From an uncultured bacterium (GTDB lineage Bacteria > Elusimicrobiota > Elusimicrobia > Elusimicrobiales > Elusimicrobiaceae), in contig CASFFZ010000010.1 in assembly GCA_949294095.1 (NCBI GenBank), positions 1-64,000 of the forward strand: DNA of 64,000 nucleotides, given 5' to 3'. The notes beneath the pieces were generated by a model. It was not told where the DNA came from. It was given only the letters and a program-made list of their open reading frames with translations, and searched no databases. Shown piece after piece: positions 54,081-59,112 of this stretch. A program made the translations under genes and the position numbers. Within the stretch, counting starts at the first letter, position 1. Each line of letters begins with the position of its first letter.

Positions 54081-54129
54081 TATACGGCGGACAACTCCGG
54101 TGGATAACTTTTTATACAGGGGAATTATT

Positions 54130-54813
54130 ATGGCGGAAGAATCTTTCAAAATACGTCTTCGCTTCCCGAGCGGCGAAGAGTTTGAAGCGCAAGGCAACCA
54201 GCAATTTGTAGAGCAGCAGCGTAATTATTTTTTAACGCTGATTGGCAAGCAAAAAGGGCGCACCTCTACCCTGTCAGCCGAGCCGGCCCTTTCCCGCACG
54301 CCGGCCTTTACGGAGGCGTCTGTTTCTCCCACTGCGCCGTCTCTTTCCCCGCTTTCCGATCCGGGCAAGCGCCTTCCGCCCCTCTCTATCCTTCCGCCCG
54401 CCGAAAGGGAAGCGGCCCCCGCAGAAAGCCCCACAGCACCTGCCGGGCTGGAATCTTCCGGCGCATTTCCCGCTTTACGGCTTTGGGAACGGCTTTTAAA
54501 AGAAGACGGGGAAATTGTCCTGCTGCGCAAAAAAATGCGCCTCAGCGCCCAAGAAGCGGCCTTCCTCTTGCTGGCCGGAGCGCGTGTACTGCTTAAAAAA
54601 CCCTCCTACACCGCCTTGGACTTGGCCAGATCCCTCAAACAATCAGGTTTTTCCGCCGGGAGATTAGACCGTTTGCTGGCACCGGAAATCCGCAGCGGGC
54701 ACTTGTCTTGCGAAGGATCCAAAAGGGGGAGAACCTATCGACTGAGCAACGAAGGCTTTGCCAAAGCCTTTGTTCTGGCAGAAAAATTAGGCCAAGACAA
54801 TAATCTGTTGTAA
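54130..54813 (+). CDS. Unknown protein with Pro-rich linker and probable winged-helix C-terminus
   Basis: 227 residues from ATG 54130. Residues 1-42 form a small domain (FKIRLRFPSGEEFEAQGNQQ, then FVEQQRNYFLTLIG). Residues about 50-115 are a Pro/Ser/Ala-rich linker. Residues about 130-222 look like a winged helix: helices around SAQEAAFLLLAGARVLL, then YTALDLARSLKQSG, a recognition-like helix AGRLDRLLAPEIRSGHL, and a wing KRGRTYRLSNEG. No family recognised. It is a single gene flanked by large non-coding stretches, with its promoter covered by palindromic operators, so an autoregulated DNA-binding protein is likely. A terminator is not obvious. Confidence 0.7.
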   Translation: MAEESFKIRLRFPSGEEFEAQGNQQFVEQQRNYFLTLIGKQKGRTSTLSAEPALSRTPAFTEASVSPTAPSLSPLSDPGKRLPPLSILPPAEREAAPAESPTAPAGLESSGAFPALRLWERLLKEDGEIVLLRKKMRLSAQEAAFLLLAGARVLLKKPSYTALDLARSLKQSGFSAGRLDRLLAPEIRSGHLSCEGSKRGRTYRLSNEGFAKAFVLAEKLGQDNNLL

Positions 54814-54832
54814 ATCCAGCCAACCCCTGGCC

Positions 54833-54889
54833 TTAGCCCTTAGCCCTTAGCCCTTAGCCCTTAGCCCTTAGCCCTTAGCCCTTAGCCTT
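54833..54889 (+). repeat. Tandem heptanucleotide array (TTAGCCC)n
   Basis: TTAG recurs at 54833, 54840, 54847, 54854, 54861, 54868, 54875 and 54882, exactly seven bases apart, then one six-base unit. A degenerate tail rich in CTAG continues to about 54938. Confidence 0.93.
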
Positions 54890-55154
54890 AGCCCTAGTCC
54901 CCTAGCGCCTGCCTAGCCCCTAGCTCTAGTCCTTAGAGCCCCGCGGCCATCCGGCCCTTTCTCCGCTGCTGTTCCGAAAACTACCCTATTAAACCGGCCT
55001 TGCAAGCAATGGGGGAAAACCTTCGCGGGGGAGCATATCCTTCCACCGCGTTACGTAAATAAGACGCTTTCCAGAAAAATATTGGAATTTTATTTAATAA
55101 GATAAAAAAAGAATATTTTTATCATATTTTTAAAAGTTATTAAAAAATAAGAAC

Positions 55155-55178
55155 TTTTATTTTTAAATAAAAATAAAA
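55155..55178. repeat. Perfect 10-base A/T inverted repeat
   Basis: TTTTATTTTT (55155-55164), AAAT, AAAAATAAAA (55169-55178), inside the AT-rich stretch. It could melt easily or form a weak hairpin; chance is possible in such composition. Confidence 0.5.
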
Positions 55179-56182
55179 AAATAAAGTTTCGTAAAACACC
55201 AAAACTCAATTTAAGTAAAGAAAAACCGCACTACCAACAGCTAACTAACGAAGACGGCATATAATTAGTACTCATTTTTGAAAAAGGGGGTTTTTTGGCT
55301 GGCTTACATAACTAATGATAATTTTTATTATGTTAATTAAAAGAGCAATAGAAAGCAAAAAACAATATCTATTATAACTATTAGTTTTATTTTGTTTTTT
55401 ATTAATTTAAAAGATTTTTTATATCTAAATTAATAAAATTTATAGTTTTTTATTTTCAGCAATTTCCGCTTGATGTGCTACGCTCAAAATTTTATCTTTT
55501 TTTGCTTGGATTCGCCTTGAATTTGCGCGACATAACAATAGTTCAGAAAAACAAAATTTAGATTATTTTTAGATTGATATTTATAAAATTAACTTCTTTT
55601 TTGATGTTTCAAACTTACATCTTTTTTGAAATTCAAAACAAAGCACTCCTCCCCCTCTTTTTTAAATAATTTAGTTGTAAAAATTTTTTTGCTTATTTTT
55701 TAATACAAATTTAAAATGAATGTAAAATTGCTAAAAATGCCCTAAAACGAATTGGGGGTACCTGGGATATGGGTTAAATCGAATTTGGGGCGATCTTAAT
55801 AAGCTCTTAAAAGAGGCCAAAACAAAAAATGGCCTTATCTTGGATTAAGGGTTTGTACACACAAGCCGGAAAACGCTTTCTGACCATATCCTTGGTAATA
55901 CAGGAGGAAGAAAGGGGGTGGTATCTTGTCCGCCGCGTGCAGGGTGGGAATGTGCCGAGAAGTTCCTGCAGGCGGCATGCTGGCCTACAGGCGTATAGGG
56001 GTGGGCGTTCATTTTAAAAGAAAGGAAGAAAGCCGAAAAGGAGCAGCCCCGTTTTCTTTTCCGGGGCATTACACGACAGAAGATATAACAATGGGGGAAG
56101 CTTACGTACAAACTTGGGCGTACGGCCACCAAAAGCGCCAAAGAAGCTCTGGCCTAAACCGGTACAAATAAAATGCGGTATG

Positions 56183-56212
56183 AATTAAGTAAAGTACCAA
56201 TTAAGTAAGGTA
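56183..56212 (+). repeat. Short direct repeat
   Basis: AATTAAGTAAAGTA (56183-56196) and AATTAAGTAAGGTA (56199-56212), one mismatch, 16-base period. A similar AATTTAAGTAAAG occurs near 55208. Confidence 0.6.
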
Positions 56213-56330
56213 GGAATTGGGCCGGCAGCTCCCGGAATTTCGCCAAACATCCGGGCCAAGGAATACAGCTATACTATCTAAGAAATAGCTTCATTCTTAC
56301 CTGTGCCGAAGAGGGGAAAACTTCTCCCAA

Positions 56331-56366
56331 CAAAACCCCCTTCTCACAAGGACGAAGGGGGTTTTA
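56331..56366. terminator. Bidirectional terminator
   Basis: AAACCCCCTTC pairs with GAAGGGGGTTTT. It ends the RPxT-repeat gene on minus. Confidence 0.8.
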
Positions 56367-56387
56367 TATAGGTTCGTTAAGCGCGTG

Positions 56388-57017
56388 TTATTTAGATCGG
56401 CCGGCCGCTTTTTCTTTAAGCAAATTTAATAAGGATTGCCCCCCCGTTGACGCCCCGCCGGAAGACATAACGGACTGGGCAGACACCGCACTGGGATCTT
56501 TTGCTTTAGTAGCTTGGAAAGCCGCCGCGGCGGCATCTTTTTCCGCCTGATTGGTTTTATTCCCCAAACCGGCCTCGCCCCCTCCCAAAGCAGAAGTTGC
56601 CGTCGGGGCTTTAAAATCCTTTGCTTGCGGCGGTTTATAATCGCTCATAGACGTCTGTGCCTGAGCGGAAGAGGAAGCCCCTTGTTTGCCTCCAGCGGAG
56701 GCCGCCGAAGAAGCGGACGCGCCCGTCGTACTCGATGGGCGGGATGTAAAAATTACCGTAGCCGGCCTATACACCCCCCGCGGCGTAACAGGGCGCGAAA
56801 CCGTTACCGCGGTTGTAGGCCGCGCAACCGTTACCGTTGTATTCGGCCGCCCCACCCGCACCGCGGTAGCGGGGCGCACCACACGGACAGCAGTCTCCGG
56901 GCGGGAAACCGTTACTGTCGTTGTAGGTCTTCCCACCGATACCTGCGTAACAGGCCGCTGCCCCCAAGCGGGGCTTACCAGCGCAAAAAAAGCACATACA
57001 CCCAAAAAAAGTTTCAT
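56388..57017 (-). CDS. Secreted protein of nine-residue RPxT repeats
   Basis: 209 residues from ATG 57017; the longer frame lacks a reason. Signal peptide MKLFLGVCAFFALVSPAWG. Residues about 25-80 are six near-perfect nine-residue units, each with alternating Val and RPxT: TVTVSRPET, AVRVVRPAT, AVRVGRPNT, TVTVARPTT, AVTVSRPVT. Ser/Ala/Gly-rich low complexity follows, and the last 20 residues are helical (SLLNLLKEKAAGRSK). Alternating hydrophobics suggest stacked short beta-strands. It follows, 97 bases behind, another secreted low-complexity gene on the same strand. No family recognised. Confidence 0.75.
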   Translation of the reverse strand: MKLFLGVCAFFALVSPAWGQRPVTQVSVGRPTTTVTVSRPETAVRVVRPATAVRVGRPNTTVTVARPTTAVTVSRPVTPRGVYRPATVIFTSRPSSTTGASASSAASAGGKQGASSSAQAQTSMSDYKPPQAKDFKAPTATSALGGGEAGLGNKTNQAEKDAAAAAFQATKAKDPSAVSAQSVMSSGGASTGGQSLLNLLKEKAAGRSK

Positions 57018-57063
57018 AAATACCCCTTCATGCATATAGTATACGTTCTCTTTGCAAGAAATC

Positions 57064-57103
57064 AAGAAAAAATCCCCCTTCTGCCGGGAGAGCAGAAAAG
57101 GGA
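57064..57103 (-). terminator. Terminator between the two secreted-protein genes
   Basis: On minus AATCCCTTTTCTGC pairs with GCAGAAGGGGGATT (one bulge), followed by T. Confidence 0.7.
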
Positions 57104-57114
57104 TTGAAAAGCGT

Positions 57115-57774
57115 TTATTTTTGGCCGGGTTGTTGGCCGGCAGAAGCCGCATTTAGTAACGAAGACATATCCGGCATACCGGGCACATTCATCCCCGCCG
57201 GCAGGCTGGGCATATTGCCGGCAGGCAGTCCTCCCGCCGCGCCGCCGGAACCCGAGGAAGCCCCCGGCATCGCCGCACCGCCCATCATATTGCCTAAGCC
57301 CTGCATCATACTTTGCATTTGTTGCATCATGGCCGCCGGATCCGCCATGCCCGCAGCCGCAGCCGCTGCAGGCGCCGCCGCATTGGAAGCGTTGGCCGGC
57401 TGCTGTCCAGCTGCATTCGCGGGGGCCGCCCCTTTTGCCGCCGGGGCCGCTTGTGCGCCGCTACCGGTTTGCAAGGCTTTTACGGCTTGAGCCGCTTGTT
57501 CGGCCGAGGTATCTTTAAATTCTTTGCTTCCCGCCGTATCGGTTTGAACCGTTTGGGTTCGCACTCCTTTGCTCCAATTGCGCTGTTGGGAGCTGTAATT
57601 GCTGAAAGTGCGCGTTTTAATACTGGAATTGGCACCGGGCACGGATGATTCTTCCGCCTCTTCTTGAGTGGCACGCGACCCGAAACTGGGGCGGGAAGTT
57701 CCCCCCGCACGGTACATTTGGGCATCCGCCGTCACGAACGCCCCCAACAACACGATAATCATCCAAAATTTCAT
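57115..57774 (-). CDS. Secreted Ala/Gly/Met-rich low-complexity protein
   Basis: 219 residues. Signal peptide MKFWMIIVLLGAFVTADAQ. Residues 20-90 are polar (GGTSRPSFGSRATQEEAEES), 95-150 Ala/Pro/Gln-rich, and 150-219 rich in Met, Gly, Pro (MMQQMQSMMQGLGNMMGG). GGGAGG lies before the ATG. It may form a surface or periplasmic matrix with the repeat protein next to it; this is only suggested by position and composition. Confidence 0.72.
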   Translation of the reverse strand: MKFWMIIVLLGAFVTADAQMYRAGGTSRPSFGSRATQEEAEESSVPGANSSIKTRTFSNYSSQQRNWSKGVRTQTVQTDTAGSKEFKDTSAEQAAQAVKALQTGSGAQAAPAAKGAAPANAAGQQPANASNAAAPAAAAAAGMADPAAMMQQMQSMMQGLGNMMGGAAMPGASSGSGGAAGGLPAGNMPSLPAGMNVPGMPDMSSLLNAASAGQQPGQK

Positions 57775-57885
57775 ATTTTCCCTCCCGCTAAGACATACTT
57801 ATTAATAGTATGATACATCCGACGGTCAATGTCAAGGTGTATCAGGCTCTTTTGACAAGGGCTTTTTTTTGCTAAACTGTAGACA

Positions 57886-59112
57886 ATGAACCTTCCTATT
57901 TATGATGTAATTATCATCGGTGCCGGTGCCAGCGGGCTGGTTTGCGCGCTGGAATGCGCCCGCCGCGGCCAAAAAACCCTGCTTTTGGAAAAAGACGCCC
58001 AGCCCGCGCGCAAAATTTTAGTCAGCGGCAACGGACGCTGCAATTTGACCAATGCGCACGTAAGCCCTTCTTTTTACCACGCAGACAAAACCCTTATTGT
58101 CCAAACGCTAAGCCAATTTTCTTTTCAAGACTGCTTAGATTTTTTTGCCCGGTTAGGGGTGTTAACCGTGGAAGAAAATCTGGGGCGGGTCTTCCCGGCT
58201 ACGGGGAAATCCACCGCCGTGGCCGAACCCCTAAAGCTGGCCGTCAGCGAGGCCGGGGCCGAAATCAAAACGTCCTGCGAAGCCGTGCGCCTAAAACGCG
58301 GCAAAATGTTTACCGTCTCCTGCCGCGGCGGCCAAGTTTTTCAATCCCGCCGTTTGGTGCTGGCTTGCGGTTCGTGCGCCTACCCGCAGCTGACGGGCAC
58401 CCCAAGCGGCTATGAGTTGGCCCGCTCGCTGGGGCACACCCTTATTTCCCCCAAACCGGCTTTAAGCGCCCTGTGCCTAAAGGAAACCGCCGTAGCCCGC
58501 TTGAACGGGATTCGCAGCCAAGTGCGCCTGCGGGCCATGCAAAACAACCGCCTGCTGGATCAGGCCGAAGGGGAAGTACTGTTTACAAATTACGGAATCA
58601 ACGGGCCGGCGGTACTCAATATCAGTTCGTCCGTTTCCCGTGCGCTGAAAGACGGAAATGTGGCGCTGGAACTGAATTTTTTCCCGCAGTTAAAAGACCC
58701 GCAGGATTTTTTGCGCCAGCGTTTGGGCGCGTTTTCCGCCCGAAGGCCGAAAGATTTTTTTGCCGGTATTTTGCACGAAAGCATTGCCAATCTGTTAATT
58801 GATTTTATCGGTCTTCGCAAAAACATTCCCGTCGGGCAGCAAACGCCAAATGCCCTGCAGCGCCTGGTGCAAACCCCGTGCGCCTGGCCGCTGACGGCCA
58901 CCGGCGTGCGCCCGTGGAACGAGGCCATGGCGGCGACGGGGGGTGTAAATACGCGAGAAATAAACTATAATACATTTGAGTCGCTTAAATGTCCGGGCCT
59001 GTATATTACGGGCGAATTATTGGATGTGGACGGCAAAAGCGGCGGATTTAATTTGCACTTTGCCTGGGCTTCGGGAACCATCGCGGCGCGGGCCTTGTCG
59101 GAGGAACAGTAA
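57886..59112 (+). CDS. HI0933/YhiN-family FAD-dependent oxidoreductase
   Basis: 408 residues. FAD-binding DVIIIGAGASGLVCALECARRG at the start, the family signature KILVSGNGRCNLTNAHV, and GGVNTREINYNTFESLKCPGLYITGELLDVDGKSGGFNLHFAWASG at the end. Members are cytoplasmic flavoproteins with unproven roles, some annotated as aminoacetone oxidases. Followed three bases later by the MORN gene. Confidence 0.93.
   Translation: MNLPIYDVIIIGAGASGLVCALECARRGQKTLLLEKDAQPARKILVSGNGRCNLTNAHVSPSFYHADKTLIVQTLSQFSFQDCLDFFARLGVLTVEENLGRVFPATGKSTAVAEPLKLAVSEAGAEIKTSCEAVRLKRGKMFTVSCRGGQVFQSRRLVLACGSCAYPQLTGTPSGYELARSLGHTLISPKPALSALCLKETAVARLNGIRSQVRLRAMQNNRLLDQAEGEVLFTNYGINGPAVLNISSSVSRALKDGNVALELNFFPQLKDPQDFLRQRLGAFSARRPKDFFAGILHESIANLLIDFIGLRKNIPVGQQTPNALQRLVQTPCAWPLTATGVRPWNEAMAATGGVNTREINYNTFESLKCPGLYITGELLDVDGKSGGFNLHFAWASGTIAARALSEEQ

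What the first reader, a model, noticed from the sequence alone, without database searches (positions are those of the whole stretch)
56388..57774. Nine-residue RPxT repeat protein beside another secreted low-complexity protein
Six units of about nine residues alternate Val with a strict RPxT, giving 27-base DNA repeats. It suggests a short beta-solenoid or fibre, with a Met/Gly/Pro-rich partner gene upstream on the same strand. I know of no family with this repeat.
Basis: seen in the sequence. Interest (0 to 1): 0.5.

Follow-up and report, generated by a model that had tools for sequence, protein, structure and literature searches.

The report
Genus-wide exported nine-residue repeat protein
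A small exported protein made largely of a nine-amino-acid repeat turns out to be kept across a whole genus of gut-type Elusimicrobiota, often beside a second exported protein, and it matches no described family; what it does in the cell is still unknown.

Summary
The gene (56388-57017, minus strand, 209 aa; the likely start lies 45 codons inside the longest ORF) has a signal peptide, nine nonapeptides (not six) of pattern x-[RHK]-P-x-T-x-V-x-V from about the mature N-terminus, a Ser/Ala linker and a conserved C-terminal module. 51 of 66 genomes of the genus carry it and 5 more carry a related single-gene form; all 37 genomes at least 90% complete have one of the two. No convincing relative was found elsewhere in a phylum sample, nor in Pfam, NCBIfam, PHROGs or PDB. 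Selection acts on the protein: Pro, Thr and Arg use several codons, motif sites change slowly, and 267 of 282 motif intervals are multiples of nine, while Arg, His and Lys interchange. The Met/Gly/Pro-rich neighbour is a second conserved family, directly upstream in 30 of the 34 genomes with both. A beta-solenoid was not confirmed: AlphaFold on a two-sequence alignment gave no strands (pLDDT about 40). My best reading is a register-locked extended arm on an envelope protein, docked by its C-terminal module. That mechanism is inferred, and a flexible multivalent string is about as likely. Sortase and YkuD attachment look unlikely.

The parts
56388..57017 (-). RPxT gene: 209-aa exported protein with nine nonapeptide repeats (stop codon included)
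   Evidence: 51 of 66 genus genomes have it
56961..57017 (-). signal-like peptide (residues 1-19, MKLFLGVCAFFALVSPAWG); no lipobox Cys at the expected cleavage site
   Evidence: read from sequence; a hydrophobic stretch lies within the first 32 residues in all 51 members; AF2 helix 3-14; no signal-peptide predictor was run
56718..56960 (-). repeat array, residues 20-100: nine units x-R-P-x-T-x-V-x-V
56652..56717 (-). Ser/Ala/Gly-rich linker, residues 101-122
   Evidence: gaps 44.7 per 1000 aa against 13.6 in the array
56391..56651 (-). conserved C-terminal module (SMSDYKPPQAKDFKA...LGGGEAGLGNKTNQAEKDAAAA..., helical end, C-terminal Lys), residues 123-209
57115..57774 (-). partner gene 'GMP': 219-aa exported protein with a conserved N-terminal block (invariant F31, Y60, G70, V71), Ala/Pro/Gln linker, GMPD end (D202 invariant), C-terminal Lys
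57071..57105 (-). intrinsic terminator-like hairpin between GMP and RPxT
   Evidence: 15 pairs, T tail; 7 terminator-like sites found in the scanned stretch against 3.4 expected, so weak
57038..57065 (-). promoter-like site in front of RPxT
   Evidence: 9 of 12; 3 promoter-like sites found against 1.5 expected, so weak
57807..57835 (-). promoter-like site in front of GMP (TTGACA-17-CATACT)
   Evidence: 10 of 12; pattern match only
56332..56365 (-). 12-bp perfect inverted repeat, loop 10, arms ending in TTTT, just after RPxT: possible terminator
   Evidence: I5; not listed, whose loop limit is 8

Best explanation
Shown: a gene kept across one genus, coding for a small protein with a signal-like peptide, whose nonapeptide array and C-terminal module are under purifying selection at the protein level, with a second such gene (GMP) directly upstream in most genomes that have both. 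Inferred: after export the protein has no membrane anchor and works in the periplasm or at the outer surface. The array, starting at about the mature N-terminus, is an extended arm held in register every nine residues: T5, V7 and V9 tend to face one way and polar residues the other, and basic-Pro marks the bend between short strand-like stretches. Such an arm would act by multivalent contact, either side by side with other copies (forming a sheet or fibre only on assembly) or along a repetitive envelope surface; unit number (3 to 10 in register) sets reach. The conserved C-terminal module and helices dock it to an envelope partner; the GMP product is the first candidate where it exists.
For: A hydrophobic N-terminus in 51 of 51 members read (the start of L034 was reset by hand). 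RPxT or the hybrid form in 37 of 37 genomes at least 90% complete. Motif spacing exactly nine in 246 of 282 intervals, a multiple of nine in 267. Gaps are rarer in the array (13.6 per 1000 aa) than in the linker (44.7) or C-terminus (27.0) over 45 pairs at least 50% identical. Without selecting on Thr, P+2 is T in 84% and S in 4% of 429 in-register prolines, P-1 is R/H/K in 85%, and V is 70% at P-3 and 68% at P+6. Mean hydropathy alternates: positions 7 and 9 are 2.21 and 3.32, positions 6 and 8 are -1.20 and -0.36. dN/dS at [RHK]P.T is 0 to 0.17 in the 6 of 9 pairs with a value, against 0.15-0.40 for the whole array (7 of 9) and 0.07-0.29 for the C-terminal module (7 of 9). GMP directly upstream in 30 of 34 genomes holding both.
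Against: AlphaFold2 gives pLDDT about 40 and no secondary structure for the array, which fits disorder as well as a missing partner or a shallow alignment. No lag-2 pattern among units. 15 of 282 intervals are not multiples of nine, nine of them 10, 19 or 20. The five hybrid proteins space their RP motifs by 12, then 10, 20 or 30, not nine, so nine itself is not indispensable if they do the same job. The array's net charge is not conserved (+11 in the window, -5 in L053). The C-terminal module is not always the slowest part: it evolves as fast as or faster than the array in G014/G040 and G005/G026. 17 of 51 RPxT genomes have no GMP match. Nothing shows location, assembly or binding.
Confidence: 0.35

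Rival explanations
1. The array is intrinsically disordered and flexible: a multivalent string of short linear motifs or a carrier of modification (for example O-glycosylation on the strongly preferred Thr), bound one motif at a time by a partner.
For: AF2 gives no structure. Thr is kept as T 84% / S 4% at P+2, with V only 2%, which suggests the hydroxyl matters. Unit number varies between species, and the hybrids use another spacing.
Against: Spacing is stricter than a flexible linker needs, and gaps are rarer than in the linker.
Confidence: 0.35
2. Intramolecular beta-solenoid or RTX-like beta-roll (two nonapeptides per coil).
For: Nine-residue unit, alternating hydrophobic positions, turn-forming Pro.
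Against: No GGxGxDxUx signature in the unit profile; no strands in AF2; no odd/even pattern; as few as three in-register units in some members.
Confidence: 0.1
3. Murein-lipoprotein-like wall protein attached to peptidoglycan through its C-terminal lysine.
For: C-terminal Lys in 44 of 50 complete RPxT proteins and 27 of 27 aligned GMP proteins, against 23% of 313 other ORFs in the same loci and 12 of 57 signal-peptide-like ORFs; 4 of 5 hybrids.
Against: YkuD transpeptidases: none in the window's genome and matches in only 8 of 66 genus genomes; no lipobox in the window's protein; background Lys is high and related sequences are not independent; the GMP of G003, outside the alignment, ends in Ile. 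A basic end may simply protect against tail-specific proteases.
Confidence: 0.08
4. Sortase-like substrate: RPxT read as an LPxT(G)-type motif, giving covalent polymers.
For: Superficial likeness of the motif only.
Against: Sortase (PF04203) matches in 1 of 66 genus genomes and not in the window's; no Gly after Thr in the window's units; no C-terminal membrane segment seen in the window's protein.
Confidence: 0.02
5. A functionless low-complexity tandem repeat produced by slippage.
For: Low-complexity composition and a tandem arrangement.
Against: All 37 near-complete genomes keep RPxT or the hybrid; conserved residues use several codons and units are about 49% identical in DNA; low dN/dS at the motif in the 6 of 9 pairs with a value.
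Confidence: 0.02

Closest known systems
RTX nonapeptide repeats (GGxGxDxUx, calcium beta-roll)
   Same: nine-residue tandem units in an exported bacterial protein; turn residues followed by hydrophobic strand residues
   Different: no Gly/Asp calcium motif; array at the N-terminus behind a signal-like peptide instead of before a C-terminal type I secretion signal; no lag-2 pattern; no beta-roll predicted. RTX description from the abstract start of PMC6891781 in the listing; signature recalled
Proline-rich periplasm-spanning arms (TonB-type Glu-Pro/Lys-Pro segment, recalled)
   Same: basic-Pro segment that could serve as a reach element in the envelope
   Different: signal peptide followed at once by the array, and no TonB domain (no Pfam match); strict nine-residue unit with Thr/Val
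Murein (Braun) lipoprotein (recalled; abstract starts on it seen)
   Same: small exported protein, helical C-terminus, C-terminal Lys
   Different: no lipobox Cys in the window's protein, not one continuous helix in the low-confidence model, and YkuD enzymes are missing from most genomes of the genus
Sortase substrates (LPxTG, recalled)
   Same: x-P-x-T core
   Different: motif repeated in tandem at the N-terminus, no Gly, sortase in 1 of 66 genomes

Membership tests
RTX repeat proteins | GGxGxDxUx nonapeptides | tested here: not met
   unit profile is x-[RHK]-P-x-T-x-V-x-V over 370 units; no Pfam match
RTX repeat proteins | two units per parallel beta-roll coil | tested here: inconclusive
   no strands in a low-confidence AF2 model, no lag-2 similarity
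Any curated Pfam / NCBIfam / PHROGs family | profile match above the curated score or with a convincing E-value | tested here: not met
   RPxT of the window: none in Pfam or PHROGs. Of 51 members, Pfam and NCBIfam gave only single-member hits, best 0.026 and 0.0037. GMP: Pfam best 0.054, below its cut-off, PHROGs 0.77, NCBIfam none
Proteins of solved structure | sequence match in the PDB | tested here: not met
   RPxT single sequence: only recA fusion constructs at E 0.008-0.019 through a Ser/Thr-rich linker; profile: best E 2.1. GMP was not searched
Murein lipoprotein type wall anchor | C-terminal Lys | tested here: met
   44 of 50 complete RPxT members, 27 of 27 aligned GMP
Murein lipoprotein type wall anchor | YkuD L,D-transpeptidase in the genome | tested here: not met
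   none in G000; 8 of 66 genus genomes match
Sortase substrates | sortase in the genome | tested here: not met
   1 of 66, not in G000
TonB-like spacer | TonB C-terminal domain | tested here: not met
   no Pfam domain in the window's protein or, above chance, in 51 members
Beta-solenoid fibre | stacked beta-coils in a structure | not testable with these tools

The most novel reading that the evidence does not exclude
A new structural repeat class: a register-locked basic-Pro-x-Thr nonapeptide arm that assembles or docks only in the envelope, together with a second lineage-specific exported protein, as an essential or near-essential envelope element of one genus of Elusimicrobiota. A single-gene hybrid form with a ten-residue register in five genomes records how the two-gene pair arose or merged.
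Probability: 0.2. Interest if true: 0.6.

Novelty: new variant of a known kind. Interest (0 to 1): 0.4.

Why it matters
In the genomes examined, a genus of Elusimicrobiota with genomes of about 1.5 Mb keeps an uncharacterised exported repeat protein (or its hybrid form) in every near-complete genome, with strong selection on a nine-residue motif that no searched library describes. Lineage-wide orphan envelope proteins of this sort are candidates for what makes such bacteria different at the cell surface, and this one is small enough to express and test directly. It is also a natural test of whether strict repeat spacing with no predicted fold means hidden structure or motif counting.

Tried and rejected
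No fold search was run on these models because they are too poor. RTX-like two-unit coil: no lag-2 signal. Sortase and YkuD were looked for and are absent from the window's genome and most of the genus. Homology of GMP and RPxT: the profile comparison aligned only the signal peptides and the start of the mature parts, so it is not claimed. Mobile origin: no match in 50,697 phage or 72,556 plasmid records (the low-complexity filter was on, which may hide repeats). Second copies: the own genome gave one RPxT match, and the C-terminal module occurs once in each of the 50 genomes that match it (that profile misses three RPxT genomes, G017, G018 and G045). Two weak hits outside the genus rejected: G145 is an 81-residue frame with near-identical tandem GRPATTASA units between other genes; G137 has six stops in the match and was not read. 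Basic residue and composition: the R share rises with locus GC (rho 0.46) and H falls (-0.49), not corrected for kinship. Rfam found nothing at 54700-58000.

Rows dropped: A3 holds 27 of the 35 GMP genes. G003, G052, G060 and G063 were left out because my text pattern missed or mispicked them, though they were seen; G005, G026 and G065 have GMP on other contigs and G058 has no RPxT locus, so these four were not read. A5 holds 44 of 51 RPxT members: six that the module pattern did not find, and the cut row L080, were left out. The dN/dS list is nine chosen pairs; values that could not be computed were saturated at synonymous sites or, for the motif in G054/G031, had amino-acid change and no synonymous change.

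What the check changed: the C-terminal module is no longer called the most conserved part; its dN/dS count is 7 of 9, not 6 of 9; the hybrid spacing and the HydF identity were added.

Full report
What is there. The window's minus strand holds two genes for proteins with signal-like starts. RPxT runs 56388-57017 (209 aa). The longest ORF starts further upstream (57152) and overlaps the partner gene, but the ATG at 57017 starts a signal-like peptide and agrees with the homologues. GMP (57115-57774, 219 aa) has its own signal-like start. In the window a terminator-like hairpin (57105-57071) lies between them and each gene has a promoter-like site. A 12-bp inverted repeat whose arms end in TTTT follows RPxT (56332-56365). 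These are pattern matches, only modestly above the shuffled expectation (7 against 3.4 terminator-like, 3 against 1.5 promoter-like). In 20 of the 30 adjacent pairs the distance is only 4-26 nt, and in the other 10, the window among them, 39-106 nt (counted from the last sense codon), so many pairs look like one operon.

The repeat. Residues 20-100 are nine units of x-R-P-x-T-x-V-x-V; the last is RPSS. In 200,000 shuffles of the mature protein the longest in-register run was 2, against 9 observed. The DNA units share 49% identity on average; the nine Pro use four codons, the nine Arg four, and the eight Thr four. The amino-acid pattern, not the DNA, is being kept.

Distribution. The single-protein search matched 54 of 66 genus genomes at E 0.1 or better, some of them chance. 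The 51-member profile A1 gave 53 of 66: 51 RPxT genes plus two members (G002, G041) of a related form. That form, searched for itself, is present in five genomes: G002, G041, G047, G053, G064 (four further hits at E 4.5e-4 or weaker not counted). In the two loci I read around it (L094, L095) it lies next to an ORF that reads like the HI0933-like gene (by eye). It has a GMP-like start (AYTVGG..RPTF in most) and an RPxT-like end, and its RP motifs are spaced 12, 10, 10, 20, 20 (12, 10, 30, 20 in G053), so its register is ten, not nine. The GMP profile hits three of the five (E 1.2e-5, 5.2e-4, 0.0058), and the C-terminal profile hits G053 and G047 (8.3e-4, 0.0043). I call it hybrid; whether it is ancestral, fused or convergent is not settled. 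RPxT or hybrid is in 56 of 66 genomes and in all 37 that are at least 90% complete; the ten without either are 66-88% complete. None of 24 genomes of other genera in the family match RPxT or GMP. In a phylum sample of 294 genomes (at most ten candidates scored per genome) only two weak outside hits appeared, and both look spurious. The C-terminal module alone was found in 50 of 340 phylum genomes, all in the genus, once each; it misses three RPxT genomes and three hybrids. A scan of GTDB contigs found one relative, L031, apparently the same contig as that of G048 (same length, same protein). Candidatus Avelusimicrobium is a possible identity, a guess from recall; of PMC8035907 I saw only the passages on that name.

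Family anatomy. Across 370 units the profile is S/T/V-rich, R49/H33/K9, P, variable, T, variable, V51, variable, V78 (that count required P and T/S/N). Counted without choosing on Thr, 429 in-register prolines have T 84% and S 4% two residues on and R/H/K 85% just before. Spacing between [RHK]PxT motifs is nine in 246 of 282 intervals and a multiple of nine in 267. In-register units per protein run from 3 to 10 and are the same or nearly so between close relatives (9 and 9 in G000/G007, 8 and 8 in G054/G031, 7 and 8 in G014/G040), so this does not look like a rapidly varying array. Array gaps are 13.6 per 1000 aa against 44.7 in the linker and 27.0 in the C-terminus (gap placement inside repeats is partly arbitrary). 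dN/dS at the motif is 0, 0.028, 0.028, 0.051, 0.071 and 0.17 in the six pairs with a value, of nine tried.

The partner. GMP has invariant F31, Y60, G70, V71 and D202 and near-invariant Y21, G24, R55, F57, R63, W67, T73, V76 and T78 (27 rows). It is in 35 of 66 genomes (not counting the three weak hits to hybrids); 34 also have RPxT, and in 30 of those it is directly upstream on the same strand. In G036 one long ORF lies between them, and in G005, G026 and G065 they lie on different contigs. The one GMP genome without RPxT, G058, has GMP 171 bases from the contig end on its downstream side, so RPxT would lie beyond it. Seventeen genomes have RPxT without a GMP match. In 16 of these the nearest upstream ORF I listed is one large conserved protein 45-86 nt away; in G006 a pilin-like ORF comes first. 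The one of these tested (L064) is HydF, the [FeFe]-hydrogenase maturation GTPase (TIGR03918 E 3e-123); the rest look alike by eye. So the pairing with GMP is usual, not obligatory. Profile comparison does not show GMP and RPxT to be homologous.

How it may work. AlphaFold2 models from two-sequence alignments are poor for both proteins. For RPxT the array has pLDDT about 40 and no secondary structure, with helices of four or more residues only in the signal peptide and the last 60 residues. The evidence therefore splits. Spacing, a low gap rate and alternating Val favour an arm in register, perhaps only on assembly; missing predicted structure, the kept hydroxyl at P+2, the exchange of R/H/K and the ten-residue register of the hybrids favour a flexible multivalent string. 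I give these equal odds and put the register-locked arm first because constraint on spacing is what a flexible string explains least. The C-terminal module is a likely docking part: in the window's own pair G000/G007 its dN/dS is 0.096 against 0.25 for the array, although in G014/G040 (0.154 against 0.147) and G005/G026 (0.293 against 0.248) it is no slower.

C-terminal lysine. 44 of 50 complete RPxT proteins and 27 of 27 aligned GMP proteins end in Lys, against 23% of 313 other ORFs from the same loci and 12 of 57 with signal-peptide-like starts, a crude set that still contains three GMP proteins and some enzymes and pilins. Four of five hybrids end in Lys; the GMP of G003 ends in Ile. This suggested wall attachment as in murein lipoprotein, but YkuD enzymes are absent from the window's genome and match in only 8 of 66 genus genomes. 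It stays unexplained.

Known or not. No convincing match in Pfam, NCBIfam, PHROGs or the PDB (RPxT only). Paper searches for Elusimicrobiota surface repeats, Elusimicrobium minutum pili or outer membrane, nonapeptide repeats with beta-solenoids, Elusimicrobiota with peptidoglycan and gut, the name Avelusimicrobium, and nine-residue repeats listed nothing whose title or abstract start describes this repeat; apart from passages of PMC8035907 I saw listings and abstract starts only, and the library lacks most subscription papers. Verdict: a real, lineage-restricted, selected protein family of unknown function; new as a family, of a familiar broad kind (exported tandem-repeat envelope protein).

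Noticed in passing
window 55000-55750: An AT-rich island (GC 23-25%) inside a 1.57-kb stretch without a convincing gene between the 54100-54813 ORF and RPxT; no Rfam match. The matching gap in relatives varies from about 0.9 to 2.9 kb.
   Followed up: partly
window 54831-54895: A 7-base tandem repeat (CCTTAGC, 9.4 copies, 96% matches), just after the 237-aa ORF.
   Followed up: no
window 54100-54813: A 237-aa ORF without a Pfam match, kept next to the RPxT gene in many of the loci read: another possible lineage-specific gene.
   Followed up: no
L096-L100 (also L094, L095): Single-gene hybrid form with a GMP-like start, an RPxT-like end and RP motifs in a ten-residue register, in five of 66 genomes.
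   Followed up: partly
window 56391 and 57118 (C-terminal codons): Conserved C-terminal lysine in both families without a YkuD enzyme to explain it.
   Followed up: partly
L064 3821-4945 and like ORFs in 15 more loci: In the genomes with RPxT but no GMP, RPxT sits just downstream of a HydF-type gene (L064 tested; others by eye).
   Followed up: partly
G031:C33:1348-1698: A sortase gene in one genus genome of about 410 contigs; possibly contamination.
   Followed up: no
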